DNA from: Hydrogenophaga sp. BPS33
Lineage (GTDB): Bacteria; Pseudomonadota; Gammaproteobacteria; Burkholderiales; Burkholderiaceae_C
DNA: 64,000 nucleotides
Reading direction: 5' to 3'
Assembly (NCBI RefSeq): GCF_009859475.1
Contig: NZ_CP044550.1
Span: 248,001 to 312,000 of the forward strand
The translations under genes and the position numbers were made by a program. The notes beneath the pieces are model-generated. The model saw only the letters and a program-made list of their open reading frames with translations, was not told where the DNA came from and did not search any database. Shown piece by piece: positions 28,438-50,921 of the stretch. Numbering within the stretch: position 1 is the stretch's first letter; each line of letters starts with the position of its first letter.

Positions 28438-28475
28438 GTGACTTTGCGGTGTTGGTTTCTGGGGCGCTGCACCCA

Positions 28476-31586: not shown

Positions 31587-32666
31587 TCAGCGATAGCTGC
31601 TCTGAATTACTTGAGACATCTGAAGCTCCATGCCCATGAGGCCAGCGACCATGAGAGCAATGAACAGGCCGACGAAGAGGATGCTGAACCCGAAGATGAC
31701 TTTCATCATCGATTCGATCTTCTCGACTGACTCTGCAATCCACTCTTTGCCAATCGTCGAAAGCGCGGTCTCGAACCCGGACAATCTCGCGTAGACACCA
31801 AGGTCATCGATGATTTCGATGTCGGGGAATCCATACCCGGACTTTGCAAGTGCATCGCCTGGGTTGAGGCCAGATCGCATTCCCTTTAGGCACGCCAGAA
31901 TCCGTATGCGCATCCAGGGCGAGGCGCCAGAAAGCAGCTGCTCAAGGGCAGTCTCGATCCGCACTCCTGCGCCAACCAGTGCGGCGAAGCTGATCATCCA
32001 TGCACTGCCGTGCTGCACCCGGTAGACGCTATACGGGACCGCTCTATCGAACCGGATACGCAGCCCCTCGCTCCACCTGGGCAGGCTCCACCAAAACGCA
32101 AGAACCAGCGCAACTGGCACGCCAGCGATTGCGCCCATCCAAGCTCGGGCAAAGTTGGCGAAGTCGATCATCAGCTTCGCCACGCCGTGCCACTTCTCGT
32201 ATGGAACGATCTGTGCGAACTCCGGGATGATCTTGTAGCTGAACATGACCAACACCCCGAATGCGATCAACAGCATGACGGATGGGTAGGCGATCCCGCC
32301 GACGACCGCGTTCTTGATCTTCTTCTTGGCGGTCATCACTTCCGCCGCAGAGACCAACGCGTCTTCGATCTTTCCCGACTGCTCGCCAGCGGAAATCAGC
32401 ATCGCCTCATCTGGGCTGACCCAGCCGACGATCGCCTGGGACAAGCGACTGCCGTTGCGCAGCTTTCGCAGCCAGTCCGAAAGGGCAACCGCAAGCGGTT
32501 CCTTGGTGCTTTTCAGCGTCACTCTTCGGGCCCGCATCGTTTCCAATGCATCGATGATGGGAACGCCGTTCCCCAGCAACTTTCCGAGCTTCAAATACAG
32601 ACGCCGACGCAGGTTCGCGTCGTTGCGGAACATGAAACGAGCAAACTTGAATTCGAGCTCATCCAT
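31587..32666 (-). CDS. pilR: PilR, inner-membrane platform protein (GspF family)
   Basis: A 359-residue GspF/PilC-family polytopic protein forming the inner-membrane platform on which the PilQ ATPase acts. Two GspF-type cytoplasmic domains are separated by hydrophobic segments (around SVMLLIAFGVLVMFS and GVPVALVLAFWW), with a final hairpin helix FSILFVGLFIALMVAGLM. It starts directly behind the PilQ stop and precedes the pilin gene, the gene order of R64 pilQ-pilR-pilS. Confidence 0.9.
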   Translation of the reverse strand: MDELEFKFARFMFRNDANLRRRLYLKLGKLLGNGVPIIDALETMRARRVTLKSTKEPLAVALSDWLRKLRNGSRLSQAIVGWVSPDEAMLISAGEQSGKIEDALVSAAEVMTAKKKIKNAVVGGIAYPSVMLLIAFGVLVMFSYKIIPEFAQIVPYEKWHGVAKLMIDFANFARAWMGAIAGVPVALVLAFWWSLPRWSEGLRIRFDRAVPYSVYRVQHGSAWMISFAALVGAGVRIETALEQLLSGASPWMRIRILACLKGMRSGLNPGDALAKSGYGFPDIEIIDDLGVYARLSGFETALSTIGKEWIAESVEKIESMMKVIFGFSILFVGLFIALMVAGLMGMELQMSQVIQSSYR

Positions 32667-32668
32667 GA

Positions 32669-34165
32669 TCAGGCCACCAATGCAAGTCGTTCGTCACCGT
32701 GGTTCTCAGCAAGGGGGCCGACTACATCCTCCGCTTGCAGCGGATCGATGATCCCTTCGTTGATCTTGCGGATGGCGTGCTCGAGCATTGACATGACGCC
32801 GAGTTCTTCGCGGATGTACGTGATCGCAGCAAGTCGGTCGTTCTGTCGCAGGAGAGCCATAAGGCTCTCGTCGCTGACGATCGTCTCCGCGACCACAGTC
32901 CTTCCGCTGGTGCCGCTGCCACCGCACTTGTCGCAACCATCAGGGTTCTGAACAAAGGCCCTCTCGACGTTGATGGCGCGCATGAAGCGCCCCACCGTTC
33001 GCGGATCGAACTCGGCTAGGTGGTCGGCAAGAGGCTGCTTGCAGTGGGGGCACAACACCTTGACCAGGCGCTGGCAAATCAGGCCCGCCACGATCGTCGG
33101 GTCTGTCACCAATGCTGGGTTCACCCCAAGGTCAGTGAGACGATCGATGATGGCGACCGCACTGTTCGCATGAACCGTGCTCCAGACCTGGTGTCCGGTC
33201 ATGGCGGCCTGAACCGCCAGTCGCCCGCTCGGGTTGTCCCGAATCTCGGAGAGCATGATGATGTCCGGGTCCAGGCGCATTGCCGCCTTGATGGCCATCT
33301 GGTACTCACGCGACCGTTCCTCTTCGGAGTCAGCGTTCGTCACAGGTGTTTGGACGGCTCCGGGAATCGGATACTCGGGAGGGTCCTCCACGGTGATCAC
33401 GTGCTTTCGACCTTGCGCTTGCTGGATGATGGCGCCCAGGGCCCTCTGAAGCGTGGTCGACTTCCCTGAGCCGGTAGGTCCACCAATCAGCACGACACCG
33501 GTAGGCTTGCGCTTGAGTATCTCGACGCACGCAACCTGCTCGGGCGAGTACCCCAGACGAGCCAGGTCGAGATCGTTCGTGGCGTCGTTGTATAGCAGAC
33601 GAAGCACCATGATGTACCCATCGACCTGCGGTGATGTGGCGATTCGGATGCCGTCCAGGTGCACTGGAATTCGGCTGCGCATCGAAATCCGCGCGTCCTG
33701 GCGCGACAGCTCTTCGAAAGTGGCGTCTGACACATCCGCCATCGCCTGGAAGATGGTCGTGCACAACTGCGACCCGTACTCGAAGGTGTGCTCTTCGATG
33801 AAGGTGAGGTCGTTGTGGATGCGAAAGAGGATCTGGGTGCGGTTGCGCGAACTGACGCGAATGTGGATATCCGACGCTCGCTTCTCGACAGCGCGCTCAA
33901 AGAGCTGCTTTGCCGTCGCCTGCATGTTGGAATGCGTCTCTGACCCGCTTGCCTGGTCGTACAGCTTGGCGATCGCTGCCAGATCACACTCTTCCACCCG
34001 AACTTCACGTTTCAGGTGCTTGAGCTTGGCCATAAACCCGCGCACATGACGGTTGTAGACGTGGCTCTTCGACACCATCAGACGGCCGTCGTCAAGGTAG
34101 GCCAAGATGGCACGCACCTCGTCCGCAACCTGTAGCTCTCCGTCTTTCGCCGTCAATACCTTCAT
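32669..34165 (-). CDS. pilQ: PilQ, pilus extension ATPase (GspE family)
   Basis: A 498-residue GspE/PilB-type ATPase that powers pilin assembly. Walker A is GPTGSGKSTT, the Asp box is VEDPPEYPIPG, Walker B is DIIMLSEIRDNPSGRLA, and the His box is STVHANSAVAI. A C-terminal tetracysteine zinc site has CPHC and CDKC pairs about 40 residues apart, as in assembly rather than retraction ATPases. The N-terminal ~130 residues are the variable domain that docks to PilO/PilR. Confidence 0.9.
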   Translation of the reverse strand: MKVLTAKDGELQVADEVRAILAYLDDGRLMVSKSHVYNRHVRGFMAKLKHLKREVRVEECDLAAIAKLYDQASGSETHSNMQATAKQLFERAVEKRASDIHIRVSSRNRTQILFRIHNDLTFIEEHTFEYGSQLCTTIFQAMADVSDATFEELSRQDARISMRSRIPVHLDGIRIATSPQVDGYIMVLRLLYNDATNDLDLARLGYSPEQVACVEILKRKPTGVVLIGGPTGSGKSTTLQRALGAIIQQAQGRKHVITVEDPPEYPIPGAVQTPVTNADSEEERSREYQMAIKAAMRLDPDIIMLSEIRDNPSGRLAVQAAMTGHQVWSTVHANSAVAIIDRLTDLGVNPALVTDPTIVAGLICQRLVKVLCPHCKQPLADHLAEFDPRTVGRFMRAINVERAFVQNPDGCDKCGGSGTSGRTVVAETIVSDESLMALLRQNDRLAAITYIREELGVMSMLEHAIRKINEGIIDPLQAEDVVGPLAENHGDERLALVA

Positions 34166-34206: not shown

Positions 34207-34794
34207 TTACTGCGCGCGCGGAGCGAGCAGCGACGGCGCGTTAGGCGAAGTGGCGCCCGGCGGAACGGCTGCGCCGGCTGCGGGCGTTGCCGCCGCACCA
34301 AAGGTCAGGCGCTTCGACTCTTTGCCACGGCCCAGCGTGATTGCATCCACCGTGATCTGGCGCACCCCCCAGCCACCAACCGTGTCTCCAACCCGGACGG
34401 ACTGGACGTTGCCGCCTGGCATCACCAAACTCGCGACAAACTTGCCATCGACACCGCCGATTTCGAGGACCGCGGGCGTGGAGCCGTCGTCGGCTTGACT
34501 TGCCGGGCCGCGTTTCAGGTGCGCAATCTCCGAGCGCTTTGCTTCGAGCTTCGCATCCAGCTCGAGCTCAGACAACTCGGCCTCTTTGACGCTCATGCGC
34601 TCATTGATGACAGCAATGGCAGATGCTGCCGGGCTTCCACGGCCAGCAGCAACGGGGGTCGTAGCCGCAGCGGCCTGTGGCTCGCTCGCCCCCGTGCCCT
34701 GACGCGGCATCTGTTGTGCGTAACTCGTCGCAGCACTGGCCGCAGCTACGGCGACCAAGAGCTTGCTGAGAGAGCTGAACTTACTTTCGAACAT
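34207..34794 (-). CDS. pilP: PilP, type IVb pilus biogenesis protein
   Basis: A 195-residue periplasmic protein with a signal peptide (LLVAVAAASAATSYAQ), an Ala/Pro-rich linker, a helical region (MSVKEAELSELELDAKLEAK) and a small beta domain (GGNVQSVRVGDTVGGWGVRQI) resembling the GspC/PilP HR domain, followed by an Ala/Pro-rich tail. It connects the PilO inner-membrane complex to the PilN secretin. Its start overlaps the PilO stop by 14 bp, and its position between pilO and pilQ matches R64. Confidence 0.85.
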   Translation of the reverse strand: MFESKFSSLSKLLVAVAAASAATSYAQQMPRQGTGASEPQAAAATTPVAAGRGSPAASAIAVINERMSVKEAELSELELDAKLEAKRSEIAHLKRGPASQADDGSTPAVLEIGGVDGKFVASLVMPGGNVQSVRVGDTVGGWGVRQITVDAITLGRGKESKRLTFGAAATPAAGAAVPPGATSPNAPSLLAPRAQ

Positions 34795-36073
34795 ACTGCG
34801 ATCCTTCCATCATCCAAATCATTCGGCCGCCCTTCCACTGCGCTGCCATCGAGCGCAGGCGGAACCCGCTGCCGTCAAGTGCATCGACAACCGCATCCGG
34901 CAACGTCACGCCGTCTGCCTTCCAAGTGAGTTCGTCCCAGAGCGGCTCTGCGCCACCCTGGCGCTTCTGGCCGGGAAGCACCTGGGTATTGCTTGTCGCG
35001 GGCGCGCTCACGGTCAGCTTGAAGCCGTAGCGCTGTGCGGCCGAGTACATTTCGGCCACCCGTGCGTTGGACGGAGACACCTCCTCGTCCTTCCCGATCA
35101 GCAGCGACGGCAGTGGGCGCGTCGAGGAAGCAAGGCTGCCGTCCAAAGAGATCACTGCATCGGGCACGACGCTCTTGAGGTGATCGATCCAGCCCCGGCC
35201 GGATGGCTTCCAGGCCACCACAACGACGCCGCCAGTGCAACTGACGCTGGCAAGATCCCAGTTGCCCGGGAACAGGGTGAACGCTTCCAGGGTTCCAAGG
35301 CAGGCGTTCTTCTGTTCGCTCGCCATCGGGATCTCGCCCCAAGGGCGAGGCCGCGGCATCTCTGCCGCTTTGCTTGCTTCGAGCTCGGCAGCTACGCGCC
35401 TTGCTTGCTCGATTGCCTTGGTTCTTTGATACGCCTTGAACTCATTGAGCCCGTACGCACAGGCGGCGACGACCGCAAGCGCAAGAACCAGCGGTTTCGC
35501 GTGCTTGGTCACCATCTGTGCGGCTGTGACCGTGATCGGAGCCAGCACCCACGAGCGCTGGAGCACCAGCTTGCCCCTGCGCCCGAGCGGTAGAAGCTCT
35601 TCGAGGGAAGGCGCTTCTTCGGACAGTGCCACGCCCCAATGGCCTGGCAAGAACATGTTGCCCCACTCGCCAATACTGTTGTCCTGGTAGAACATTGTTT
35701 TGGCGATCTCTTCCGAATCGATGATCTGGTCCCTTTCGGGAATGATCACCCCATCCTTCTGAGCGAGGTAGTACCACCGGCCTCCACCGAGGTCGGCGAC
35801 AAACAGGAAGTCACGAGCGTTACTGAGTTCGTGCAAGCGATCCACCACCGCCATCGCCAGGGAGGCGACGCCGGCCTTGATCTCGGCACCTGACTTGGCC
35901 AGGCCGGTGCACAGCCCATCTCGGTGGACAACGTGAAGGTTGAGATCTAGTTCCTTGCCGATTCCCTTGATCTCGGTCGCACGCTCCCCGGTGTTCGTGG
36001 ATGTGAGAGGCTGCCAGAGCAGCCCAGCCGCGAAGTCACGACCGCCATAGGAAAACACCTGGGCGAGTTCCAT
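34781..36073 (-). CDS. pilO: PilO, pilin accessory protein
   Basis: A 430-residue PilO protein of the R64 type. The N-terminal ~190-residue cytoplasmic domain opens MELAQVFSYGGRDFAAGLLWQ. A single membrane segment (KPLVLALAVVAACAYGLNE) and a periplasmic domain with the GNWDLASVSCTGG region follow. It anchors the extension ATPase to the envelope complex. Its start overlaps the PilN stop by one base, and it continues into PilP with overlap, which indicates tight translational coupling. Confidence 0.87.
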   Translation of the reverse strand: MELAQVFSYGGRDFAAGLLWQPLTSTNTGERATEIKGIGKELDLNLHVVHRDGLCTGLAKSGAEIKAGVASLAMAVVDRLHELSNARDFLFVADLGGGRWYYLAQKDGVIIPERDQIIDSEEIAKTMFYQDNSIGEWGNMFLPGHWGVALSEEAPSLEELLPLGRRGKLVLQRSWVLAPITVTAAQMVTKHAKPLVLALAVVAACAYGLNEFKAYQRTKAIEQARRVAAELEASKAAEMPRPRPWGEIPMASEQKNACLGTLEAFTLFPGNWDLASVSCTGGVVVVAWKPSGRGWIDHLKSVVPDAVISLDGSLASSTRPLPSLLIGKDEEVSPSNARVAEMYSAAQRYGFKLTVSAPATSNTQVLPGQKRQGGAEPLWDELTWKADGVTLPDAVVDALDGSGFRLRSMAAQWKGGRMIWMMEGSQYVRK

Positions 36074-37752
36074 CAGCGTGCACCTGCAACGATCGGCTGG
36101 ATCAACACGACCAGGACATTGCGTGTCTTCGAGGCCCGCACAGAGCCGCCCAGCGCCACATTGGTCGCCTTGCCGACCCCAGCCGAACGGCCTTCATCCG
36201 CCAGCTGCTCGAAGCCGGTCACCACCAGCGTTTCGCCACTGTTGAGGATCGTGCGCTGAAGGAAGTTGCGCGTGTCGATCTCCGGCGTCTGAATGGAGGA
36301 GCCGCCCGAAACGACCTGATCGATCCCGAGCAACGACGAAATGTCCCCGCTGAACTGCAGCATCAGACGCTTGTCATCGAGAATGTGTGGCAGCGTGTTC
36401 AGGGAGAAACCAGTAGTGACCTGCCCAGGCTGGAGCGTCGTGGTATTCCCCGCGCCGCCAGTTCCCAGCGTCGTCGTGCTCGATGCCAAGTAGGCCGTTT
36501 GACGCCCCACCTGAATCGGCGCAGGTTGGTTGTTGATCGTCAGGAGTGAGGCCGACGTGACCTGCGAGACGCGTCCTTGTTTGGACAGGGCTTCGACCAT
36601 CGCTTCCGTTCCGTTCCAGTTGCTGGTCGGTGACAGGATTCGCATGCCGAACGAAGAGGCACCGATGATCGGCTCCGCGGCCGAGGAAAGGGTCAAACCC
36701 ACGCTGCGGTTGACGCTCTGGTACACCGCCTCCCAGTTGATCCCGTATTGATCCGAGTCACTGAGTTCGACAGCGAGGACCTTCACGTTGATCGACACTT
36801 GCCTCGAAAGCGAAGCGTTTTGCGCGTCCACAAAGCGCGCCAATCGCTCGATGACCACGGGTGTGTCGTCAACGGTGATGGTGCCAGTAGAAGGGGTAAC
36901 AACCAGGCGCCCGTCTGGGGAAAGCATCGCCTTGATGCTGTCTTCGATGCCCTTCCAGACGCTCATGCCGGAGAACTCAACCCCTGCGCGCATCTCACTG
37001 CTGGCAGAACCGCTAGCCGAGCCGTTCGAACTGTTGCCGTTGACGCCGGTGGTGGTGTTCGATTGCGTACCAACGCGCGCCTGCAGGCTGGTATCGCCCG
37101 GGAGCGCTGCAAGACGGAAGGTCGCCGACTTGGTCACGAAGAAGTGAACGCCCATGCCGTCCCACTCCCAGAAGACGCCATATTTCGACGCCATCAGGTC
37201 CAGGAAGCCACGCACCGAGCCGCTGTACACCACCGGAGCTGCCACGGCGTCGCGTGATCCTGCGGCAGATCCATTGGCCTGGACCGTACCGCTCGGCAGA
37301 GGGGGAAGCGGTGCCTGTGAACTGTTCGCAGGCGTTCCTGAAGGGCTGGCGGGCGTCTCGCTGGACGAAACTTCAGCCTCGGCGTTCTTCCGCGCAGCAC
37401 GCGAAACACTTGTCACGATGCCGGTGATCTGGCTCAGGTAGCTTGCCGAGTCCACGAGACCATCGAATCGACGATTCACGGCAAACGAACGATTGAGCGC
37501 CGCCTCAGCGCGCGGGTCCTTCGCCTCAGCCATTTTGCTGACCGGGATCCAAACCCGGTCGACACGACGCACCGACGTTGCCACGACCGGGCCCATCGCA
37601 GTGGTGTCGCGAACGGCACGGAGTGCGCTTTGGGCCTCCTTGCCCACGGCGTCGACCTTTTCGACGACGGGCTTCATCGTCGCGGTCGAGCAGCCAGCGA
37701 GGGTTGCGATCATCATCGTCGCGAGGATCGTTTTTTTGGTCTTGGTCATCAC
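36073..37752 (-). CDS. pilN: PilN, outer-membrane lipoprotein secretin
   Basis: A 559-residue secretin of the type IVb pilus. The lipobox LAGC lies at residues 18-21, so the protein is a lipoprotein as in R64 PilN and BfpB. N-domains (GFLDLMASKYGVFWEWDG; DDTPVVIERLARFVDAQN) are joined by a Gly/Ser/Thr linker, and the C-terminal secretin domain includes VNVKVLAVELSD-like and ETLVVTGFEQ elements. It forms the outer-membrane gate for the pilus. It overlaps neighbours on both sides by 4 bp and 1 bp. Confidence 0.9.
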   Translation of the reverse strand: MMTKTKKTILATMMIATLAGCSTATMKPVVEKVDAVGKEAQSALRAVRDTTAMGPVVATSVRRVDRVWIPVSKMAEAKDPRAEAALNRSFAVNRRFDGLVDSASYLSQITGIVTSVSRAARKNAEAEVSSSETPASPSGTPANSSQAPLPPLPSGTVQANGSAAGSRDAVAAPVVYSGSVRGFLDLMASKYGVFWEWDGMGVHFFVTKSATFRLAALPGDTSLQARVGTQSNTTTGVNGNSSNGSASGSASSEMRAGVEFSGMSVWKGIEDSIKAMLSPDGRLVVTPSTGTITVDDTPVVIERLARFVDAQNASLSRQVSINVKVLAVELSDSDQYGINWEAVYQSVNRSVGLTLSSAAEPIIGASSFGMRILSPTSNWNGTEAMVEALSKQGRVSQVTSASLLTINNQPAPIQVGRQTAYLASSTTTLGTGGAGNTTTLQPGQVTTGFSLNTLPHILDDKRLMLQFSGDISSLLGIDQVVSGGSSIQTPEIDTRNFLQRTILNSGETLVVTGFEQLADEGRSAGVGKATNVALGGSVRASKTRNVLVVLIQPIVAGAR

Positions 37753-38144
37753 TTCACCTCTTGAATGCGCACGGCGTTGTTTGCGTAGATCTCAGCCTCC
37801 AGTCGCACCTTGTTCAGACGCATTGAGCCGAGGACCATGTCCAGCGCTTTGTCGAAGTCGTGGTTCAGCACCAGGTCGGCTTCACTACGGAATTCCGGCG
37901 CTTCCCAGCTGAGGGAGTAGCCGTGGCGTTTGGCCCACTCCACCAGACGCGGCGAGATGAGGTCACCCGCTTTGATGGACAACGACAGGTCCACCTTGGG
38001 TGCGGGCGGCTTCTCCATCGGCTTGATGGGCAGCGCAGTCGTCGACGCCTGGATCGGGAATTCCTCGGTCACGATGCGAATGTTCTGCGCCTGCGCGGAT
38101 GCGGCGACGAGAGCCAGCAACGTGATGGTGTGTTTTGCGTTCAT
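37749..38144 (-). CDS. TcpQ-like secretin-associated protein (PilL C-domain-like)
   Basis: A 131-residue exported protein with a signal peptide (TLLALVAASAQAQ), consisting essentially of one TcpQ-type domain: LSIKAGDLISPRLVEWAKRHG and YSLSWEAPEF, then FDKALDMVLGSM and the AEIYANNAVRIQE end. In the toxin-coregulated and R64 pili this domain (TcpQ, PilL C-terminus) guides and stabilises the secretin. ATG 38144 is chosen for the GAGGA upstream. The two further copies of the domain in the next protein (38160-39863) make three TcpQ-like domains in a row. Confidence 0.78.
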   Translation of the reverse strand: MNAKHTITLLALVAASAQAQNIRIVTEEFPIQASTTALPIKPMEKPPAPKVDLSLSIKAGDLISPRLVEWAKRHGYSLSWEAPEFRSEADLVLNHDFDKALDMVLGSMRLNKVRLEAEIYANNAVRIQEVK

Positions 38145-38159
38145 GGTTGTCCTCAAATC

Positions 38160-39863
38160 TCAAATGCCGCTGATGACCAGCGTGTTGTTTGCGTAGGCCA
38201 CTGCCTTCATCCGATAACCCGCAGAGGCCACCTGTGCCATAACGAAATCGGCCGCCGCCAGGAAGGTGGGTTGATCGACCAGCGCATCCCCCGCGATCGG
38301 CACGCTCTCGCGCGCATTCCAAACGACCGACCAGTTGGCCTCACGGCCCCAGCGATTGAGCATTTGTTCCAGGCTCTTATCGTCTGCTCTCATCGACCAC
38401 TTGCGCCCCGGCTCATCGAGCCCAAACCCCCCCATAGAGTCGGATTGGTTCGCAATCGGGCGCCCGGCGCGGCTGTTCGCAACTGGCCCGCGCGCCGCGT
38501 TCGTCGCTGCTGCATTGGTTGCGGCGGGCGTTGACGTTGTGGGTGCCGCCTCAGGCTTAGCGCCCGCCGCCGTGAAGCGGATCACACGGTTGCTGTAGAC
38601 GGTTGCATCCAACGCGTACCCTGCTTGGCGCAGGCCGACCAGCAGACGTTCAATCGCTTCCTTGATAGAGGAAGCCTGAATCGCAGCGTCTCCCGCGACT
38701 TGTGCGTCCAGTTCTGGCGGAACCTCCCAAACGATGGTGTGCCCCACGGCCGCGGCCCAGCGGCGCACGGTGCCTTGGACCGTCTTGTCCGTGGCCAGCA
38801 TCCGAAAACCCCCAGCCGGTACGGCGGGTTGCGCCACGGGCGGCGGCGTGAGGCTGGGCCCATTCGGCGTGTCCATAGCAGCTTGGGCCGAATGGCGCCG
38901 CAGCATTGCGTTGCCCTGTTCCACCGTGAGTACGCCCGAGCGCACCAGCGCCTGGATGTTGGCTTGGTTGCTGTTCATGGGGCGCTGATGGGAGCCCGCC
39001 TGGCGCGCGCCCTGTGCCTTGGCTTCCACGCTCACGCGAACGTTGGACTCCCAGAGGTTCTTGTCCTGCTTGCCCGCAACGGCCACCCGCGTGGTGATGG
39101 ACTCTGCAGACACCCCAGCCTTCACAAGCGCATCGCGCATCGCCTTTGCGCGCGCCTGGTCCAGACCTTCCTTGAGCGTCTCGTCGTCACGCCCAACGAC
39201 CTCGAGCCGGTCGCCCGACGCCACCTTGGCTGCGATGGCCGCCAGCAGCTTGCGCCCTTGGGGCCCCAGCACATGGCTCCCTTTGGGGAACCAGATCGTT
39301 TGTTCGGTCGTGGAAACTTGCGGTTCGACCCATGCCACGCGGTCCCCTCGGACTGGGGTTGCGTAGCTGTTGCGTTCCTGCGCGTCATCCACCAGGGCGG
39401 GAACTACCGGTGCAAGCGATGCCACCAGTCGCGATCCCGGGCGCACCGGGCCGCCGCTGTAAGGCGTTCTCATACCATTCTCGGCAAGCTGATCGATCGG
39501 TGGCACATCCAGGCGATCTCCAGCTCCGTGGACGACCATCGCCTGCGCGCGCCCGAGCTGCAGCGTGAATTGGCCATGTACCTCAGATACCTTGATGTAC
39601 GGGCCTTCGTGGGTCGGCACCAGAAGCTTCATGCCGCCGTTGTTCTTGGCGAAGATGGCTGGGATCGCTTCGCCAGCTCTGAACTGGAAGTAGGTATTGC
39701 GGCCGTCGTCAAAGACCTGCACGGGCGCTGCCCTGAGGCTGCCCGAGGTCATGTAGGTGAAGTCATAGGCACCGACCTGTTGCTTGGCGCTGCCCACGGC
39801 CGCGTTTGCATTGAGCAGGACGATTGCGGCAGCTGCCGCCGCCTTGGTAAGTTTGGCTTTCAT
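38160..39863 (-). CDS. Chimeric VirB9-like / OmpA-like / double TcpQ protein (PilL-like)
   Basis: A 567-residue exported protein with four parts. Residues ~34-112 align by eye with the C-terminal domain of the VirB9 encoded just upstream (shared VFDDG..TYF, PA.FA, G.YI and L.LG..x..VH). Residues ~188-265 look like an OmpA C-terminal domain (IWFPKGSHVLGPQGRKLL, VVGRDDETLKEGLDQARAKAM). Residues ~352-430 and ~488-566 are two TcpQ-like domains (FRMLATDKTVQGTVRRWA and WSMRADDKSLEQMLNRWG). A signal peptide precedes. It sits exactly between the VirB8-B9-B10 genes and the pilus genes, so it may physically join the T4SS core to the pilus secretin (inference). Confidence 0.75.
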   Translation of the reverse strand: MKAKLTKAAAAAAIVLLNANAAVGSAKQQVGAYDFTYMTSGSLRAAPVQVFDDGRNTYFQFRAGEAIPAIFAKNNGGMKLLVPTHEGPYIKVSEVHGQFTLQLGRAQAMVVHGAGDRLDVPPIDQLAENGMRTPYSGGPVRPGSRLVASLAPVVPALVDDAQERNSYATPVRGDRVAWVEPQVSTTEQTIWFPKGSHVLGPQGRKLLAAIAAKVASGDRLEVVGRDDETLKEGLDQARAKAMRDALVKAGVSAESITTRVAVAGKQDKNLWESNVRVSVEAKAQGARQAGSHQRPMNSNQANIQALVRSGVLTVEQGNAMLRRHSAQAAMDTPNGPSLTPPPVAQPAVPAGGFRMLATDKTVQGTVRRWAAAVGHTIVWEVPPELDAQVAGDAAIQASSIKEAIERLLVGLRQAGYALDATVYSNRVIRFTAAGAKPEAAPTTSTPAATNAAATNAARGPVANSRAGRPIANQSDSMGGFGLDEPGRKWSMRADDKSLEQMLNRWGREANWSVVWNARESVPIAGDALVDQPTFLAAADFVMAQVASAGYRMKAVAYANNTLVISGI

Positions 39864-41148: not shown

Positions 41149-42063
41149 TCAGTCCTGCACGACCTGACCAAGCCAATTGCGCTTGATGACGCGGTGCACG
41201 CGCACCTCGGGCTTACCCAACTTGAGAACCGCGGTCTCCAGCAAGCGCTGCGCGACGATGTAGTCCCCGTTGACCGTGTAGTTCACCAGGCTGTACTCGT
41301 TCCCTTCGATGACGGCGAACAGCGCCGGCTGCTCCTGCAGATTTGCGGGCATGCGGAAGTAGGTGAACTTGCCGTCGTCAAAGACCATGTCCGGCCGGAA
41401 CGGCGCATCCCCCTCGATGCGGTAGTTGAACCGCATGCTGGACGGATTGATCCCCAAGGCACCGGCATCGCCTTGCTCCGACCGGGGCTTGCCTTCAACG
41501 CTGCGGGCGGCCCCTGGCGCGCTCGACGGCACAGGTACCTGGCCCTCCTTGAGGCGCGTCGGTCGCTCTGCCTCATCCTCTGCTGCTCCCGCAACCTCGG
41601 ATGGATCCATTTCCAACAGCACTTCCTTGGCGTAGACCCAGGAGACTCGCTGGTACCACTTTCTTCCGTCGCCCGTGGACTTGAGCACGAACTGGTAGGG
41701 GCGCTTGTCGGTGAGTACCGTCAAGGAAGTCTCAAGGTCTTCGTAGCGAGGCTTGAGAAAGAGGTTCTTGCGGTTCTTGGTGGGCGTGATCTCCCAGTTC
41801 GAGGTGTCGCCCGCAGCGACCGACATGATCACTTCGTCGGGCGCGAACTGCAGATGGGTCACTGCCCGCGGTTTGGCCAGGACCAAGAATGTGTTGTCCG
41901 CATCGAATTGGAACTCCACCAGCCGCGTATCGCCGCGAAGGGGCGTTGCAATGAGTTCGGCCGTCGCCGGTTGATGCGCCAGCAACAAAGCGGCAACGGC
42001 GAGCGCTGCGCTCAAGCCGCGAGCGTTCAGCATGCTCATGGGAGTTCGGTAGTTGATCTTCAC
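41149..42063 (-). CDS. virB9: VirB9/TrbG, T4SS core outer-membrane protein
   Basis: A 304-residue VirB9/TrbG/CagX protein. The signal peptide (AALAVAALLLAHQPATA) precedes the N-terminal domain (VEFQFDADNTFLVLAKPRAVTHLQF) and the C-terminal domain with MRFNYRIEGDAPFRPDMVF and DGKFTYFRMP, which inserts with VirB10 and VirB7 at the outer membrane. It overlaps the VirB8 stop by 4 bp. I see no VirB7 lipoprotein gene. The C-terminal domain is duplicated in the chimeric protein at 38160. Confidence 0.92.
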   Translation of the reverse strand: MKINYRTPMSMLNARGLSAALAVAALLLAHQPATAELIATPLRGDTRLVEFQFDADNTFLVLAKPRAVTHLQFAPDEVIMSVAAGDTSNWEITPTKNRKNLFLKPRYEDLETSLTVLTDKRPYQFVLKSTGDGRKWYQRVSWVYAKEVLLEMDPSEVAGAAEDEAERPTRLKEGQVPVPSSAPGAARSVEGKPRSEQGDAGALGINPSSMRFNYRIEGDAPFRPDMVFDDGKFTYFRMPANLQEQPALFAVIEGNEYSLVNYTVNGDYIVAQRLLETAVLKLGKPEVRVHRVIKRNWLGQVVQD

Positions 42064-42839
42064 TGCGCGCGCTCCTCGGCATCGCTAAAGTAGGTGACAA
42101 GAATGCCCAGGGGGTTTGCCAGCAATGCGGCTTCCTGGGTTGCGGGCGTCAGCCGGTAGTTCAGGGTGACGCGGTATCGCTTGATGCGGTCGGCGGCCGG
42201 TGCGCTCGAACCGACCCGCTCGGTGGTCGTGATGAAAATGAAGGCCGTTCCGCGGGCGCTTGCGTCGACAGCCGTCACCTTGACCTCGCGCGCCAGGTCC
42301 TTCTCGTTGCGAATGCGCTCGAAAACGCGTTCGCGCGCACGAAACTCCGTGAACTGCGCCACGGCCTTGTCAGCGGCGCGGCTGTTCGCCCAGCGCATTT
42401 GTTCGGACGTTCGCAGCGGATCGAGGGTGTAGACAGCCTCCACCCAGCGCGCCAGCTCGGCCTTGATCACCGCCAGATTCGGGTCGATCCTCTCGACCTG
42501 GACTGGACGGTTGACGATGCCCGTCTCGGGATTGATCTCCACTACCCATGGACGCACTTCCTTGAGCGGCAGCAGAACCGACACCGAGGCGACCGCCGCG
42601 ATCGCGAGCAGGATCGACAGCATCGCCACGACGAACCAGCGGGCAGCATCCACTTTGGAGGAGCCGTAGATCTCGGCGAACGCCGCCATCCCCTTGCCGA
42701 AGACGACTGCCGGCGTGTTCGGCTGATTGGCCATTGCAGCGATGGCGTCGACCTTCTTGGCCTTCTTGCCGGGTGTGTCCTCTGACGGGACCAGTGGTCC
42801 GTTTCCTTTAGTGGGTCTGGATCGATTGAAAAAAGACAT
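42060..42839 (-). CDS. virB8: VirB8/TrbF, T4SS inner-membrane assembly protein
   Basis: A 259-residue VirB8/TrbF protein: a cytoplasmic N-terminus, one membrane segment (FVVAMLSILLAIAAVASVSVL) and the periplasmic NTF2-like domain (RPWVVEINPETGIVNRP, NYRLTPATQEAALLANPLGILVTYF). It nucleates the T4SS and contacts VirB10. AAAGG precedes the ATG. A terminator and a 120-bp leader with a palindrome stand upstream, so virB8-B9-B10 and the pilus genes probably form one transcription unit separate from the virB11-B1 genes. Confidence 0.92.
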   Translation of the reverse strand: MSFFNRSRPTKGNGPLVPSEDTPGKKAKKVDAIAAMANQPNTPAVVFGKGMAAFAEIYGSSKVDAARWFVVAMLSILLAIAAVASVSVLLPLKEVRPWVVEINPETGIVNRPVQVERIDPNLAVIKAELARWVEAVYTLDPLRTSEQMRWANSRAADKAVAQFTEFRARERVFERIRNEKDLAREVKVTAVDASARGTAFIFITTTERVGSSAPAADRIKRYRVTLNYRLTPATQEAALLANPLGILVTYFSDAEERAQ

Positions 42840-42956
42840 GAGCGGTACCTTTCCCGGACGATGCTAAGGACGAAGTGCCCACAGGCAGGGACGTTCAACG
42901 TCTGCGTTTCACCGCATAGCCCCGGGAAAGGGCCCTCACTTGGACTGCTCTGATCG
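42840..42956. promoter_or_regulatory. Leader/promoter region of the virB8-pil unit with operator-like palindrome
   Basis: Between a terminator and the VirB8 start lie the perfect odd palindrome GACGTTCAACGTC (42891-42903) and a 9-bp inverted repeat CTTTCCCGG (42849-42857) / CCGGGAAAG (42922-42930). The position fits an operator for the T4SS-core/pilus operon. No -35/-10 pair could be assigned with confidence. Confidence 0.45.
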
Positions 42957-42982
42957 AAAAAAAAGCCAGCTCGACGGCTGGC
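42957..42982 (-). terminator. Rho-independent terminator behind the virB11-B1 unit
   Basis: On the minus strand GCCAGC/GCTGGC forms a 6-bp GC stem with a 6-base loop, followed by eight T. It lies 20 bases behind the small membrane-protein gene at 43004 and separates it from virB8. Confidence 0.85.
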
Positions 42983-43003
42983 CATTTCAGGGGTGGTGCG
43001 AAC

Positions 43004-43462: not shown

Positions 43463-43499
43463 CGATATTCCAGTTGCCATGGATGGGCGCGAGTTCGGT

Positions 43500-44114
43500 T
43501 CACTGGTCGAACGCCATGAGGCCCGAGCTTTCCGCCTTGGCGACTCGGGAGCCAGTCGGCTTCTTCGCGCCTCCCTCTTGGGCCACGGCCTTGAATCCGC
43601 ATGCCTCAAGGGACTTCGTACGCCGGCGAGGCTCTTCCACCACCTTCCAGTCCACCAGAGCGTTCCACACCAGGTCGACGTACCGATCGTTGTAGCAACG
43701 CGAGACAGAGTGATAGGCGCCCACGGCAAACCACGTGTTTCCGTACTGGCGATATTGCTTGGATAGATGCCACGCTGCCACGTAGGTCGATACGCATGGA
43801 TCGAGCAGGTCGGTTCCGCTGATCCCATGCTTGGATAGCTCGCGCAGATGGATGGTGTTGATCTGTGCCATCCCGATGTCTTTTGTGCCGTTCGGGTTTC
43901 GGTTGACCGCCCCCGGGTTGAAATTGCTCTCCACCTTGAGGATTGCCTTGAGCACCCACGGATTCACCGAGTGGCGTTCGGCTGCCGCGACCACGCATCG
44001 TGTGGCCGGCGTCAGCGCCATATCCTCCAAACGCGGAATGGCTCCTGCCGACTGCGCGCTTGCGCCGCTCGCGATCACAACGCCCGCCAGAAGCAGGCCC
44101 ATCATTCGTTTCAT
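43500..44114 (-). CDS. virB1: VirB1-like lytic transglycosylase
   Basis: A 204-residue exported SLT-fold transglycosylase that opens the peptidoglycan for the T4SS and perhaps the pilus. Signal peptide LLLAGVVIASGASAQS; catalytic Glu62 in LKVESNFNPGAVN; then the GMAQIN and AWHLSKQYRQYG motifs of the VirB1/PilT(R64) group. The start ATG 44114 matches the signal peptide, and the longer in-frame start reads into the AAA+ gene in another frame. Because the pilus operon has no R64-type PilT transglycosylase, this one may serve both machines. Confidence 0.9.
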   Translation of the reverse strand: MKRMMGLLLAGVVIASGASAQSAGAIPRLEDMALTPATRCVVAAAERHSVNPWVLKAILKVESNFNPGAVNRNPNGTKDIGMAQINTIHLRELSKHGISGTDLLDPCVSTYVAAWHLSKQYRQYGNTWFAVGAYHSVSRCYNDRYVDLVWNALVDWKVVEEPRRRTKSLEACGFKAVAQEGGAKKPTGSRVAKAESSGLMAFDQ

Positions 44115-44116
44115 GC

Positions 44117-46141
44117 TTAGAGAACCGTCCTGACTGCCTGGTCGAGATCGGCCTGGCAGAGCACGACCGGCGTTACTCGCCGCGAAATAGCCCGGTTGAG
44201 CGCTGCCTGGGCAACGGCTTCGGCGTTGGCGATGCTCTCGCCCTCCACAGCTTTGCCAACGGCGGCCAGCGTCAAACCTGCTCCCAGCTTCACCTTGCGA
44301 CGGGCGAACCACTGTTCAAGGTAGACACCCATCGCCTCGGCATTCGGGCGCTCAAACAGCACCTTCTCGGTGAAGCGTCCACCGCGCAGCAAGGCGGCGT
44401 CGATCTGCTCCGGGTTGTTCGTCGCAGCCACCCAGACCACATCCTTGACGCGGTCGTTCACGCCATCCATGAGCGTGAGCAGCTTGTTGGTGGCTTCGGT
44501 GTTGGGCGAGTAGTCTCGGCTCTTGAGCAGCTCGTCGGCCTCGTCCACGAAAATCATGCAGGGGCGCAGTTCCTTGGCCTTGGCGTAGAGCTTTTCCAGT
44601 GCCTTGGGGTCACGAGCAAGGTCCGCGCCGGTCGCCGGCAGGAAGGCCCAATCGATGGCTTTCGCCAGGGCTTTCGCAGTGGCAGTCTTGCCAGTACCGG
44701 GAGGGCCGTAGAACAGCACGCCGGTAGGCAGTGTGCCGCCATGCGACTCGGTGTGCTCAGGGTCGGCCATGCGCCCGGCGACCAGCTCCAGCATGTCGCG
44801 GGTGGTCGGCGTTAGCACCAGTTCTTCCATGGGCTTGACGTTCTCCAGCGTCGTGCCTTTGCGGCCCTGCAGCGTTCGCAGCGCGCCCATGAAGTCTTCG
44901 AACGCCGGCTGGGTCTTCCCCTCGCGCTCAAGATATGAAGGCAGTTCCTCGGTGACGGCCAGGATGCGCTTGACGGAAAAACCATTCCATCGGCACGCAA
45001 CCGCTTCGACGAGCGCCTCATCGACGAGGGCTTTTGGCAGGTTGGTCTTCAAGCCGAATTTAAGCAGGCCAACCCGGGCCTCGCTGTCGGGCGGCGTGAT
45101 CTCGACCTTGAAGTCAAAGCGGCCCTCACGGATGCCCGCGCCGTCCAGGCGGTCGATGTGGTTGGTGGCAGCCACAAGGATGACACGGTCCTTGCGAACG
45201 TCGACCATGAGCGTGAGCAGCGCGTTAACCACGTCGCGATCCTCTTTCACGCCTTGACCGGCTCCGCCATCACGCGATTCGAGGAAGCTGTCAACCTCAT
45301 CGACGAACAGCACGCAGGGCTGGTTGGCACGCGCCTCGGCGAATACGGCATTGATGCGTGAGGACTTTTCGCCCACCCAGGGACTGGCCACGTCCGCGTA
45401 CGACAACTGGAACAGCGGGAGCTTGAGTTCGCCGGCCAGGGCCTCGGCGAAGACAGTCTTGCCGTTGCCCGGCTCGCCAGAGAGCAGGATGCCGTTGCGC
45501 GCGGTCTTGCCATCGGCTCGGCGAGCCACGATTACGTTGGCGGCTTCATTCAGGCGGGCCTTGATCTCGGCGTTGCCGAAGATGTCCTTGAAGGTGGTCT
45601 TCGGGTGAACACGGCGTGCGACCGACTTCTCCGTCATAGCCACCTTGTTCGACACCCGGGTTCGGGTAGCGGTGATTTCGCCGGTCGCCAACGGGCCAAC
45701 CCGTGCGAGCACCGCGAGTAGCGTCATCCAGGCAACGTAACCAGCCAGCAGCGCCATTGGGAGACCCATAGGCTGGCTGGAGAAGAACAGCATCAGGACC
45801 AGGAAACACGCCCCCAGGCCTGCAAGCGTTGGAGCCGCAACCTGCATGAAGACCGATCCGCTGATGGTCAGGTCGCCCAGTGCCACGCGGGCGATCACTC
45901 GCCAGATCAGCGCACAGCCGCCCAAGGCTGACAGGATGAAGATGGGCGCGAAGATGCTGGCTGCCGGCTCTGCGCGGCTTCCCAGTTCGACGCCCGCACC
46001 CCATCCCATGTAGCCACGAAAGCTCTGCCATGCGATCGCCGAAAGCCAGAAGCCCTTGACGACGACGACGATGAGCATGGACAGTCTCGCTGCCAACGAT
46101 TCAGCATGGAAGAAGACGTTCTGGAAAAGGGTCTTGAGCAT
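44117..46141 (-). CDS. Membrane-anchored tandem AAA+ ATPase
   Basis: A 674-residue protein with several N-terminal membrane segments (within residues ~20-150) and two AAA+ modules. D1 has Walker A GEPGNGKT (222-229), FVDEVDSF and the ATNHIDRLDGAGIREGRFD block. D2 has GPPGTGKT, FVDEADELLKS and ATNNPEQIDAALLRGGRF with the second-region Arg finger. The layout is like FtsH/Cdc48-type unfoldases but without a protease domain. It lies inside the T4SS operon between virB6 and virB1. Remodelling or clearing of T4SS subunits, or substrate unfolding, is a plausible role. ATG 46141 has AGAGG upstream. Confidence 0.82.
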   Translation of the reverse strand: MLKTLFQNVFFHAESLAARLSMLIVVVVKGFWLSAIAWQSFRGYMGWGAGVELGSRAEPAASIFAPIFILSALGGCALIWRVIARVALGDLTISGSVFMQVAAPTLAGLGACFLVLMLFFSSQPMGLPMALLAGYVAWMTLLAVLARVGPLATGEITATRTRVSNKVAMTEKSVARRVHPKTTFKDIFGNAEIKARLNEAANVIVARRADGKTARNGILLSGEPGNGKTVFAEALAGELKLPLFQLSYADVASPWVGEKSSRINAVFAEARANQPCVLFVDEVDSFLESRDGGAGQGVKEDRDVVNALLTLMVDVRKDRVILVAATNHIDRLDGAGIREGRFDFKVEITPPDSEARVGLLKFGLKTNLPKALVDEALVEAVACRWNGFSVKRILAVTEELPSYLEREGKTQPAFEDFMGALRTLQGRKGTTLENVKPMEELVLTPTTRDMLELVAGRMADPEHTESHGGTLPTGVLFYGPPGTGKTATAKALAKAIDWAFLPATGADLARDPKALEKLYAKAKELRPCMIFVDEADELLKSRDYSPNTEATNKLLTLMDGVNDRVKDVVWVAATNNPEQIDAALLRGGRFTEKVLFERPNAEAMGVYLEQWFARRKVKLGAGLTLAAVGKAVEGESIANAEAVAQAALNRAISRRVTPVVLCQADLDQAVRTVL

Positions 46142-46184
46142 ATGGCCTCTGATCTGGTACTGCACTCAACATACCGGAAGGTTG

Positions 46185-47561
46185 TCAAACTGCAATATCG
46201 GACGCCGCCTTTTTATCCGCAGCCGCCTTCTGCTTGAACGTCTTTTGATAGCCGCGGTCGTAACCTGCCTTTGATGCGCCCACGCGGTACGCCATATCGC
46301 GTTCTTGCCCATTCTTCGCGTGTCTGGCACCAACCGCAGACGAAACTCCACCGGAAGCGAGGTTCTTGATTCCACCTGCGGCGGCTCCCGTCGGCGCACT
46401 AACCGAAGACGACGCAATCCTGCCGCTCGGCGCCGTGGTCAGGCCCTTGATCCCGCCGAACCCTGTAGAACCCGCGCTACCCGACAGCAGGCCCGTGGCA
46501 ATGGACGGCACCTGCATCAACATCAGTGTGCTCAACAGGGAGATGATCATCATCATCGCGTGCATAAGCAGATCAGCTGTCATCTTCTCGGACGACTGTG
46601 CCGCCGCCATCTCTGCCACCATCTGCGCCTGAACCTGACTGAGCGACGAAAGGATCGAAGACGCTGCAGTGAGCAGGAATGCAAGCACGATCTTCATCAT
46701 GCAGGCGCCCAGCAAGAATTTGAGCCAGGAGTCGAATATCCAGGAAAGCGGCTTGAACATGAAGAACGGCACCATGACAGGTGCGAGCGCCAAGACCAAC
46801 GTCAGCGACACAAACGACATGATCACTGTCGCCATCCCTCCAACAGCCGCGATCACCAAGAAAAGGATGGTCAACCCCTTCGCGAGCATCGTACCGATGA
46901 GAGACATGGCCGCTGGCAGCCAACTCGTCGGATCAAAGGCCGAGGAGATATCCGATGTTGGCATTTGCGTGACGGTCGCGATTGCGGAGAAAACCGGATT
47001 TGCAACTGTCTCCAATGCGGCCGACAGCGTGCCCATTTGCCCGCCTCCCAAGGCCGTACCCACCGACGTCATAAAGGCCTCAATGCCTTTCGCGGCCGAT
47101 TGGTCCAGGAACGTGTAGACGAAGGCGAAAGACACCCAAATCGGCACCCACTCGCCGATCAGTTCCCCAAAGCCCCTTCCAGCCGCCATCGTCTTCACGG
47201 CAGTCCAGACCATTAGGGCGACCAGAAAGAAGCCGGCAATGATATTGCCCATCTCCTTGAGATTGCCATTCGCGAGCTTTTGCAGGGCTTGATCTACCGC
47301 CTCGGACACACGCGGCACCAGTTGCTGCATGCCGACGTCATAGGATGATTTCGCCGCTGGAGCTGCGGCCTGACCATTCCCCGCATCTTGGGCTCCAACC
47401 AACGCACTCGCGAAAGCGGCGATGAGGATCAACGTGAGCACGAGATTGCGGGGGCGCATGAACCTCGCGCGCTTGTCCGCCAGCCAATCAATTGTGGGTT
47501 CGACAATGCGGCCAACCCAATAGCCGAAGATGATGTTCGCCTGCATGTTCATGGTCCGCAT
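46185..47561 (-). CDS. virB6: VirB6/TrbL, T4SS polytopic inner-membrane protein
   Basis: A 458-residue polytopic membrane protein of the TrbL/VirB6 family: a long periplasmic loop after the first helix, then about six hydrophobic segments (for example IIAGFFLVALMVWTAV, LTILFLVIAAVGGMATVI, LTLVLALAPVMVPFFMF) and a cytoplasmic Gly/Ala/Ser-rich tail ending in Lys-rich helices. It forms the inner-membrane channel with VirB8/B10 and the substrate path. It lies between virB5 and the AAA+ ATPase in operon order. Confidence 0.88.
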   Translation of the reverse strand: MRTMNMQANIIFGYWVGRIVEPTIDWLADKRARFMRPRNLVLTLILIAAFASALVGAQDAGNGQAAAPAAKSSYDVGMQQLVPRVSEAVDQALQKLANGNLKEMGNIIAGFFLVALMVWTAVKTMAAGRGFGELIGEWVPIWVSFAFVYTFLDQSAAKGIEAFMTSVGTALGGGQMGTLSAALETVANPVFSAIATVTQMPTSDISSAFDPTSWLPAAMSLIGTMLAKGLTILFLVIAAVGGMATVIMSFVSLTLVLALAPVMVPFFMFKPLSWIFDSWLKFLLGACMMKIVLAFLLTAASSILSSLSQVQAQMVAEMAAAQSSEKMTADLLMHAMMMIISLLSTLMLMQVPSIATGLLSGSAGSTGFGGIKGLTTAPSGRIASSSVSAPTGAAAGGIKNLASGGVSSAVGARHAKNGQERDMAYRVGASKAGYDRGYQKTFKQKAAADKKAASDIAV

Positions 47562-50864: not shown

Positions 50865-50921
50865 GGCAATGCGACAGGGGAAGGTGAAATGAGGCACGCG
50901 CGGACCTAGCCGCGCGTGTGT

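What the first reader, a model, noticed from the sequence alone, without database searches (positions are those of the whole stretch)
38160..39863. Chimeric VirB9-OmpA-TcpQ-TcpQ protein bridging a T4SS core and a type IVb pilus
Residues ~34-112 line up with the C-terminal domain of the VirB9 encoded 1.3 kb upstream (shared VFDDG..TYF, PA.FA, G.YI, L.LG, VH). They are followed by an OmpA-like peptidoglycan-binding domain and two TcpQ-like secretin-pilot domains. The gene lies exactly between virB8-B9-B10 and pilN. A single protein carrying parts of both outer-membrane machines suggests a physical hybrid of the VirB channel and the thin-pilus secretin.
Basis: partly seen in the sequence, partly recalled or inferred. 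Interest (0 to 1): 0.8.

Follow-up and report, generated by a model that had tools for sequence, protein, structure and literature searches.

The report
Protein linking DNA channel and pilus
A large environmental plasmid encodes a protein built from one piece of the machine that exports DNA during bacterial mating, a cell-wall anchor, and pieces typical of a pilus, which may be how the pilus that catches a partner and the channel that passes the DNA are held together.

Summary
The minus-strand gene 39863-38160 (567 aa) encodes a VirB9 C-terminal domain, an OmpA-like domain and two TcpQ (N0-type) domains; profile, PDB-sequence and model comparisons agree. The family is real: 166 homologues. In 16 of 16 loci examined the gene follows virB10 and lies upstream of pilN.

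Two results go beyond the reading. First, by descent the protein goes mainly with the VirB module: its VirB9 domain tracks VirB10 (Spearman 0.92) more than PilN (0.15) or PilQ/PilR (0.54), and pilus modules have been swapped downstream of it. Second, four of four genomes of one genus (probably Scleromatobacter) keep it in a pilus cluster with no VirB10 match in the genome and no other VirB9 match, so contact with VirB10 cannot be its only role.

Best reading: a peptidoglycan-anchored adaptor between the VirB core and the pilus secretin (0.5). Pilus-only and T4SS-only roles remain open; no interaction is shown. Related VirB9-domain proteins lie between virB10 and the secretin gene in five further plasmids, but not in two IncI PilL tested. 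New variant of PilL/TcpQ adaptors; no paper in the searched library holds both TcpQ and VirB9.

The parts
38160..39863 (-). VirB9CTD-OmpA-TcpQ-TcpQ fusion gene, 567 aa
39783..39863 (-). residues 1-27, signal-peptide-like start (by eye; no lipobox cysteine)
   Evidence: sequence; helix 4-22
39510..39776 (-). residues 30-118, VirB9 C-terminal domain
39330..39377 (-). residues 163-178, near-invariant linear motif NSYATPxxGDxxxW in a low-confidence linker
   Evidence: matched in 124 of 124 rows of A2 and 0 of 60 of A4; pLDDT block means 49 and 59
39021..39317 (-). residues 183-281, OmpA-like peptidoglycan-binding domain
   Evidence: D227 and R238 in 124 of 124 rows
38565..38816 (-). residues 350-433, TcpQ/N0 domain 1
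38163..38417 (-). residues 483-567, TcpQ/N0 domain 2
37749..38156 (-). small separate TcpQ protein, 135 aa
   Evidence: Pfam TcpQ 4.2e-12; co-varies more with PilN than with VirB10
36073..37752 (-). PilN secretin, lipoprotein by lipobox
   Evidence: TIGR02520 5.7e-117, over cut-off
34781..36073 (-). PilO
   Evidence: PF06864 7.5e-38
34207..34794 (-). PilP-like
   Evidence: TIGR03021 6.4e-8, just under cut-off
32669..34165 (-). PilQ-position assembly ATPase
   Evidence: GspE/PilB family matches under their cut-offs; position
31587..32666 (-). PilR-position inner-membrane protein
   Evidence: ComGB/GspF matches under their cut-offs; position
30996..31535 (-). PilS-like pilin
   Evidence: weak pilin matches; position and homology to L004
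30000..30965 (-). PilT-like ATPase
   Evidence: TIGR01420 1.3e-32, under cut-off
28476..29543 (-). PilT-like ATPase (retraction candidate)
   Evidence: TIGR01420 3.1e-79, under cut-off
26914..28476 (-). PilV-like tip pilin
   Evidence: prepilin N-terminus 9.1e-5; homologue annotated pilV in L004
39873..41171 (-). VirB10
   Evidence: PF03743 1.3e-48
41149..42063 (-). complete VirB9
   Evidence: PF03524 4e-60
42060..42839 (-). VirB8
   Evidence: PF04335 5.6e-37
43500..44312 (-). lytic transglycosylase
   Evidence: PF01464 2.5e-20
44117..46165 (-). double AAA+ ATPase inside the virB operon
46185..47561 (-). VirB6
   Evidence: PF04610 8.4e-14
47576..48337 (-). VirB5-position protein
   Evidence: position only; no NCBIfam match
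48324..50897 (-). VirB4
   Evidence: VirB4/TrbE families about 1e-103, under their cut-offs
51685..52677 (-). VirB11/TrbB-like ATPase
   Evidence: TIGR02782 1.3e-65, under cut-off
54027..55982 (-). TraD coupling protein (SXT type)
   Evidence: TIGR03743 8.4e-211, over cut-off
55984..57891 (-). MobH relaxase
   Evidence: NF041494 1.4e-54, just under cut-off

Best explanation
The protein is a secreted, peptidoglycan-anchored adaptor of a conjugation system that has both a VirB channel and a type IVb pilus. Its VirB9-type domain docks on the VirB outer-membrane core, most likely on VirB10 or at the edge of the O-layer. Its OmpA domain holds the cell wall. Its one or two TcpQ/N0 domains contact the base of the PilN secretin, by analogy with the BfpB-BfpG complex. 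Long flexible linkers let it span two machines, so that a pilus pulled back by PilT-like motors brings the recipient to the mouth of the DNA channel. Shown here: the domains, their conservation, the gene order, and descent mainly with the VirB module. Inferred: both contacts, the mating role and the retraction.
For: Domains by Pfam, PDB profile search and model. Homologues of the same architecture (all 120 listed carry CagX and TcpQ; VirB9, motif and OmpA columns filled in 124 of 124 rows). Order VirB8-9-10-fusion, then PilN, in 16 of 16 loci. Over 15 loci, pairwise identities of the VirB9 domain rank with VirB8/9/10 (Spearman 0.89/0.91/0.92), less with PilQ and PilR (0.54, 0.54) and hardly with PilN (0.15); OmpA 0.80 with VirB10 v 0.12 with PilN; TcpQ1 0.87 v 0.29; one-out jackknife ranges for VirB10 and PilN do not overlap for these three. 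Swaps in both directions: L013 v L021 VirB10 64% and fusion VirB9 domain 81% but PilN 20%; L020 v L021 VirB10 32% and fusion 40% but PilN 68%, PilQ 93%. Candidate peptidoglycan contacts D227 and R238 in 124 of 124 rows. VirB9-CTD-like proteins between virB10 and the secretin gene also in Rhodoferax, Comamonas, Azonexus, Cupriavidus and Thioalkalivibrio plasmids. Two PilT-like ATPases in the pil cluster.
Against: No interaction is shown by any search. In four genomes of one genus the protein is kept in a pilus cluster without any VirB10 match and without another VirB9 match. A complete VirB9 is encoded next door, so no vacancy in the core is evident. Co-variation may be partly adjacency: the gene touches virB10, and the breakpoints fall after it. 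PilN identities near 20% are saturated, which lowers any correlation with PilN; with PilQ and PilR the VirB9 domain still gives 0.54, and TcpQ1 gives 0.81 with PilQ and 0.68 with PilR. TcpQ2 does not discriminate (VirB10 0.62, PilR 0.61, PilN 0.41; jackknife ranges overlap). TcpQ1 stays 77% identical between L013 and L021 while PilN falls to 20%, which speaks against a specific TcpQ1-PilN contact. The TcpQ domain also resembles the N0 domain of X. citri VirB7, a T4SS protein. The motif is missing in L053 and, by eye, in the Azonexus, Cupriavidus and Thioalkalivibrio proteins, all beside VirB genes. L013 is a short MAG contig and could be chimeric; L008 and L012 (isolates) show the same trend.
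Confidence: 0.5

Rival explanations
1. Pilus-only: it is a PilL-type secretin adaptor that recruited a VirB9-CTD fold long ago as an oligomerising or secretin/outer-membrane-binding module. It does not touch the VirB core; the shared operon only co-expresses the two machines.
For: It stands upstream of pilN where a PilL is expected. TcpQ2 matches the BfpB-BfpG secretin complex chain 9u5s_R. In genus g139 (four of four genomes; probably Scleromatobacter) it persists in a pil cluster with no VirB10 match in the genome. The IncI2 and IncI-gamma PilL tested carry TcpQ. TcpQ1 also correlates with PilQ (0.81).
Against: The VirB9 and OmpA domains co-vary far more with VirB8/9/10 than with PilN, and after pilus swaps the old fusion stays with the VirB genes. 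The two IncI PilL tested have no VirB9 domain. The g139-type proteins aligned lack the motif (0 of 60), so they may have changed role.
Confidence: 0.25
2. T4SS-only: it is an extra outer-membrane-core subunit, comparable in parts to X. citri VirB7 (tail plus N0) or to the Dot/Icm outer-membrane set. The TcpQ domains form an extra ring on the VirB core and the pilus is a separate machine.
Against: Retained without any VirB10 match in g139 genomes. All 16 loci have PilN downstream. That VirB7 is missing is not established: the lipobox scan passed over an annotated EexN-family lipoprotein in L020 and listed a 48-aa lipobox frame in L005.
Confidence: 0.2

Closest known systems
PilL of IncI plasmids (IncI2, L018; IncI-gamma/K1, L019), type IVb thin pilus
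   Same: C-terminal TcpQ domain, pil cluster of a conjugative plasmid; in IncI2 the VirB genes lie between pilM and pilN
   Different: lipobox starts (by eye), no VirB9 or OmpA match
BfpG/TcpQ secretin partners of type IVb pili
   Different: small single-domain protein; no VirB9 or OmpA part
X. citri VirB7 (VirB7 tail plus N0 domain; PMC3093366, passages read)
   Same: a T4SS outer-membrane subunit joined to an N0-type domain; sequence-level match to the TcpQ domains
   Different: lipoprotein with a VirB9-binding tail, not a VirB9 domain; no OmpA domain; the main text holds neither TcpQ nor PilL
Dot/Icm outer-membrane set DotH/DotD/DotK (PMC8486379, PMC2951367, passages read)
   Same: a VirB9 homologue and N0-type proteins in one outer-membrane cap; that DotK is OmpA-like is recalled, not seen
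   Different: separate proteins; here one chain carries comparable parts
TrwF/VirB9 of R388
   Different: the fusion lacks the VirB9 N-terminal domain
PAPI-1 transfer system (PMC12857230, passages read)
   Same: conjugation that joins T4SS ATPases with a type IV pilus; a chimeric machine is proposed there
   Different: the review gives only VirB4 and VirD4 as clear T4SS homologues; here VirB4, 6, 8, 9, 10 and 11-like proteins by profile (VirB2/VirB3 by eye only, VirB7 not found) and a candidate physical link

Membership tests
VirB9 (full protein) | C-terminal beta-sandwich domain | tested here: met
VirB9 (full protein) | N-terminal domain of VirB9 | tested here: not met
   profile match only at CagX 107-195 and VirB9 156-244
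VirB9 (full protein) | binding to VirB10 and VirB7 | not testable with these tools
   no complex prediction available
PilL / TcpQ secretin adaptor | TcpQ domain | tested here: met
   Pfam 3e-27, two stretches
PilL / TcpQ secretin adaptor | encoded just upstream of pilN | tested here: met
   16 of 16 loci, a small TcpQ gene between in 15 by that profile (annotated in the 16th, L005); in L020 also an iscB gene
PilL / TcpQ secretin adaptor | lipoprotein signal, as in the two IncI PilL read | tested here: not met
   no cysteine near the start of P0001 (by eye)
PilL / TcpQ secretin adaptor | binds the PilN secretin | not testable with these tools
   structural analogy to the BfpB-BfpG complex only
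OmpA-like peptidoglycan-binding | fold | tested here: met
OmpA-like peptidoglycan-binding | Asp/Arg contacts to the peptide | tested here: inconclusive
   D227 and R238 in 124 of 124 rows; equating them with the known contacts is recalled, no ligand test
X. citri-type VirB7 | lipobox plus VirB9-binding tail | tested here: not met
   no lipobox in P0001 (by eye)
X. citri-type VirB7 | N0 domain | tested here: met

The most novel reading that the evidence does not exclude
In these plasmids the VirB channel and the type IVb pilus form one envelope supercomplex. The fusion's VirB9 domain sits in the VirB O-layer itself, in place of some VirB9 or VirB7 copies, while its TcpQ domains grip the PilN secretin, so that pilus retraction is mechanically coupled to placing or opening the DNA channel. 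In the main family the NSYATP motif could be a docking peptide for the T4SS side.
Probability: 0.22. Interest if true: 0.88.

Novelty: new variant of a known kind. Interest (0 to 1): 0.62.

Why it matters
How a mating pilus that finds the recipient hands over to the channel that passes DNA is an open question; for PAPI-1 a chimeric T4SS-pilus machine has been proposed, and its parts remain to be tested (PMC12857230, passages). This family offers a single, deletable candidate for a link, in environmental Burkholderiales plasmids, together with natural experiments: pilus swaps, and a genus without VirB10. If it is a bridge, a VirB core complex and a type IVb secretin would be tied together. If not, a VirB9 domain has found a life outside T4SS, which I would also regard as new.

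Tried and rejected
Motif as a clean T4SS marker: matched in 124 of 124 rows of A2 (single-letter variants in a few rows; A168, P170, G173, D174, W178 in all) and in 0 of 60 of A4. But L053, beside VirB genes, lacks both motif and OmpA domain; by eye it is also missing in the Azonexus, Cupriavidus and Thioalkalivibrio proteins and altered in Comamonas and Rhodoferax, all beside VirB genes.

VirB7: a lipobox scan of the window and five loci listed no small lipoprotein in the window cluster, but it is insensitive: it passed over an annotated EexN-family lipoprotein in L020 and did list a 48-aa lipobox frame in L005 upstream of the AAA+ gene. Absence of VirB7 is therefore not claimed. The idea that the PilN lipid tail stands in for VirB7 was dropped because the tails differ between loci (by eye).

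Recent duplication of the neighbouring virB9: in the CTD tree (59 rows, 89 columns) most fusion domains lie apart from the cognate VirB9s, but F_L053 falls among VirB9s and two frames of L064 join the g139 fusions; the best tree needs 3 label changes, one clade of fusions is not rejected (p-AU 0.223) and is not shown.

TcpQ copies: 53 rows with two, 71 with one rests on alignment columns; which copy is kept is not resolved that way, and pBN2 (L005) has no Pfam TcpQ match in the fusion.

Taxon scans: of 399 genomes of the family 153 had some match at E 0.001 or better, many to one domain only; long matches spanning the whole model in two (G000, G114), and separate matches to all three domain types in the four g139 genomes. 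Of 369 genomes of the class ten matched at 1e-12; apart from G000 and G114 these look like ordinary VirB9s from match position and frame length. In g139 genomes only VirB10 and VirB9 families were sought, not VirB4 or VirB8; the genomic context of the other relatives is unknown.

Other: fold rows are a ranked list and do not exclude other folds. Loci L092-L096 were fetched as controls but showed no virB10-pil stretch in what was fetched and were not counted. L010, L014, L022, L023 were seen but left out as near copies or cut contigs; L011 was dropped as a near copy of L009.

Full report
What is there. The window lies in a 6.77-Mb, three-contig genome, on contig C2. On the minus strand runs one long cluster: MobH relaxase, TraD, VirB11-like ATPase, VirB4, VirB5-position protein, VirB6, a double AAA+ ATPase, a lytic transglycosylase, VirB8, VirB9, VirB10, the fusion, a small TcpQ protein, PilN, PilO, PilP, PilQ, PilR, PilS, two PilT-like ATPases and a PilV-like pilin (several names rest on position, on matches under the family cut-off, or on homology to L004; VirB2 and VirB3 were seen by eye only). 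The fusion starts 9 bases after virB10 and ends 3 bases before the small TcpQ gene, which overlaps pilN by 4 bases.

Family. A search of 5.8 billion proteins returned 166 homologues (only the 7,998 candidates sharing most words were scored); all 120 listed carry precomputed CagX and TcpQ domains. In an alignment of 124 rows (the window protein, the 120 listed and three plasmid proteins, near copies included) all rows fill the VirB9, motif and OmpA columns; 53 have two TcpQ columns filled and 71 one. The most conserved stretch is not a folded domain but residues 163-178 (mean commonest-residue fraction 0.81, against 0.74 for the VirB9 domain, 0.57 for OmpA, 0.61 and 0.64 for the TcpQ domains): NSYATPxxGDxxxW, matched in 124 of 124 rows with few variants, yet modelled with pLDDT of about 50. 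A conserved but unfolded stretch is what one expects of a docking peptide; that is inference. Of 399 sampled genomes of the family, two (the window's and one congener) gave matches over the whole model and the four of genus g139 gave separate matches to all three domain types; 153 had some match, many to a single domain. In 369 genomes of the class nothing comparable turned up outside the window's genus.

Neighbourhood. In 16 of 16 loci with enough flank, from plasmids, isolates and MAGs, the order is VirB8, VirB9, VirB10, fusion, then PilN, usually with a small TcpQ gene between. The two IncI PilL proteins tested (IncI2, IncI-gamma) have a TcpQ domain but no VirB9 or OmpA match, although IncI2 also carries VirB genes interleaved with pil genes. 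A profile of the fusion's VirB9 domain does find proteins encoded between virB10 and the secretin gene in more distant plasmids: Rhodoferax T118 (3.3e-23), Comamonas pB1A (1.9e-20; gene in two frames), Azonexus (1.3e-9; with a DotD domain instead of TcpQ), Cupriavidus pBB2 PilL (3.7e-9) and the gammaproteobacterium Thioalkalivibrio K90mix (5.2e-8 in a lipoprotein and 1.5e-6 in the TcpQ protein); in the last two a transglycosylase gene comes between virB10 and it. Pfam CagX scores for Azonexus, Cupriavidus and Thioalkalivibrio are under the cut-off. The best of 220 shuffled controls scored 0.015, and neither IncI PilL was hit. A VirB9-domain protein near the pilL position may thus be a regular feature of plasmids with a MobH- or TraI-domain relaxase, TraD, a VirB system and a type IVb pilus; the sample is small.

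Which machine does it belong to? I compared pairwise identities over 15 loci. The VirB9 domain ranks with VirB8, VirB9 and VirB10 (Spearman 0.89, 0.91, 0.92), less with PilQ and PilR (0.54, 0.54) and hardly with PilN (0.15). OmpA: 0.80 with VirB10, 0.12 PilN, 0.43 PilQ. TcpQ1: 0.87 with VirB10, 0.29 PilN, but 0.81 PilQ. TcpQ2: 0.62 with VirB10, 0.41 PilN, 0.61 PilR, so it does not discriminate. The small TcpQ protein goes the other way, 0.24 with VirB10 and 0.57 with PilN. PilN identities near 20% are saturated, which depresses its correlations. Leaving out one locus at a time, or three of the four window-like loci, keeps the contrast between VirB10 and PilN for the VirB9 domain, OmpA and TcpQ1. 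Two pairs show the swaps plainly. L013 and L021 share VirB8 76%, VirB10 64%, fusion VirB9 domain 81%, but PilN only 20%. L020 and L021 share PilN 68% and PilQ 93%, but VirB10 only 32% and the fusion VirB9 domain 40%. The fusion therefore goes mainly with the VirB module by descent, and the small TcpQ protein more with the pilus module. Adjacency may explain part of this, and L013 is a short MAG contig; L008 and L012, from isolates, show the same trend (fusion VirB9 domain 58% and 57% to the window, PilN 18% and 28%).

The counter-example. Four genomes of one genus (G139, G223, G293, G353; completeness 100, 100, 88, 93) have a VirB9CTD-OmpA-TcpQ protein; in the three whose flanks were read it is followed by pil genes, with no VirB8/9/10 beside it (L052, L054, L055). 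None of the four has a TrbI/VirB10 match, and their only CagX/VirB9 match is this protein. The protein of G139 equals P0122, which a source names from Scleromatobacter humisilvae, on a contig of the same length, so the genus is probably Scleromatobacter. Its 203 relatives (120 listed) show a sizeable family of unknown context; the 60 that I aligned all lack the motif. So the VirB9 domain can be kept without VirB10 or VirB9. This is one lineage, and the tree cannot say whether the T4SS was lost there or never present. One further locus, L056, has OmpA and TcpQ without the VirB9 domain (a 7.8-kb contig of a genome 65% complete, with no TrbI or CagX match), and L053 has VirB9 and TcpQ without OmpA.

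Weighing. Descent ties the protein mainly to the VirB module; its TcpQ domains, its place and the counter-example tie it to the pilus. An adaptor between the two explains both better than either alone, but no contact is shown, and TcpQ1 not following PilN is a point against. I put 0.5 on a bridge, 0.25 on a pilus-only and 0.2 on a T4SS-only role.

Literature. No paper in the searched library (5.39 million open PMC papers) holds both TcpQ and VirB9. A four-term search listed 14 papers, none with TcpQ. Two wider searches listed 20 of 200 and 15 of 2,603 papers, none of those listed with TcpQ (the rest were not seen). Searches on PilL with VirB9, on PilN with VirB10 and on Polaromonas JS666 gave listings only. 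Subscription papers are mostly not covered. Passages of PMC3093366 (X. citri VirB7, N0 domain), PMC2951367 (DotD), PMC8486379 (Dot/Icm), PMC9045228 (TP114 pilus) and PMC12857230 (T4SS review) were read. None of the passages seen describes this architecture.

Noticed in passing
44117-46165 (-): A 682-aa double AAA+ ATPase lies inside the virB operon, between virB6 and virB8, and recurs there in most of the loci compared, but was not detected in L004. Its role in conjugation is not known to me.
   Followed up: no
L004:11063-14924: In Hydrogenophaga plasmid pPBL-H3_B2-1 no virB5, virB6 or AAA+ gene was detected between virB4 and the transglycosylase gene, although PLSDB types the plasmid as conjugative.
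   Followed up: no
42839-43510 (-), approximately: Small protein with a C-terminal hydrophobic segment encoded in front of virB8 (by eye).
   Followed up: no
L088:27295-28569: The Azonexus protein between virB10 and the TcpQ gene has a Pfam DotD domain (4.3e-7) where the others have TcpQ, with a VirB9-type start: a Dot/Icm-type part in a VirB plasmid.
   Followed up: partly
L090:25288-26506: Thioalkalivibrio K90mix plasmid has two successive genes with a VirB9-CTD-like stretch, one of them with a lipobox-like start.
   Followed up: partly
L091:7863-9167 (-): Cupriavidus pBB2 PilL has a VirB9-CTD-like start and a very weak second one near its end (domain E 0.63): possibly two copies.
   Followed up: no
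L020:16976-17914: An iscB gene sits between the small TcpQ gene and pilN in Polaromonas JS666 plasmid 2, where the VirB and pilus modules of different descent meet.
   Followed up: no
L087:26789-27891: In Comamonas pB1A the fusion reads as two overlapping frames (VirB9 part, OmpA-TcpQ part), either a frameshift or a natural split.
   Followed up: partly
28476-29543 and 30000-30965 (-): Two PilT-like ATPases in a plasmid type IVb pilus cluster, which suggests a retractable pilus.
   Followed up: partly
L056:6390-7127 (-): A pilus-cluster protein with OmpA and TcpQ domains but no VirB9 domain, possibly an intermediate or a reduced form.
   Followed up: partly
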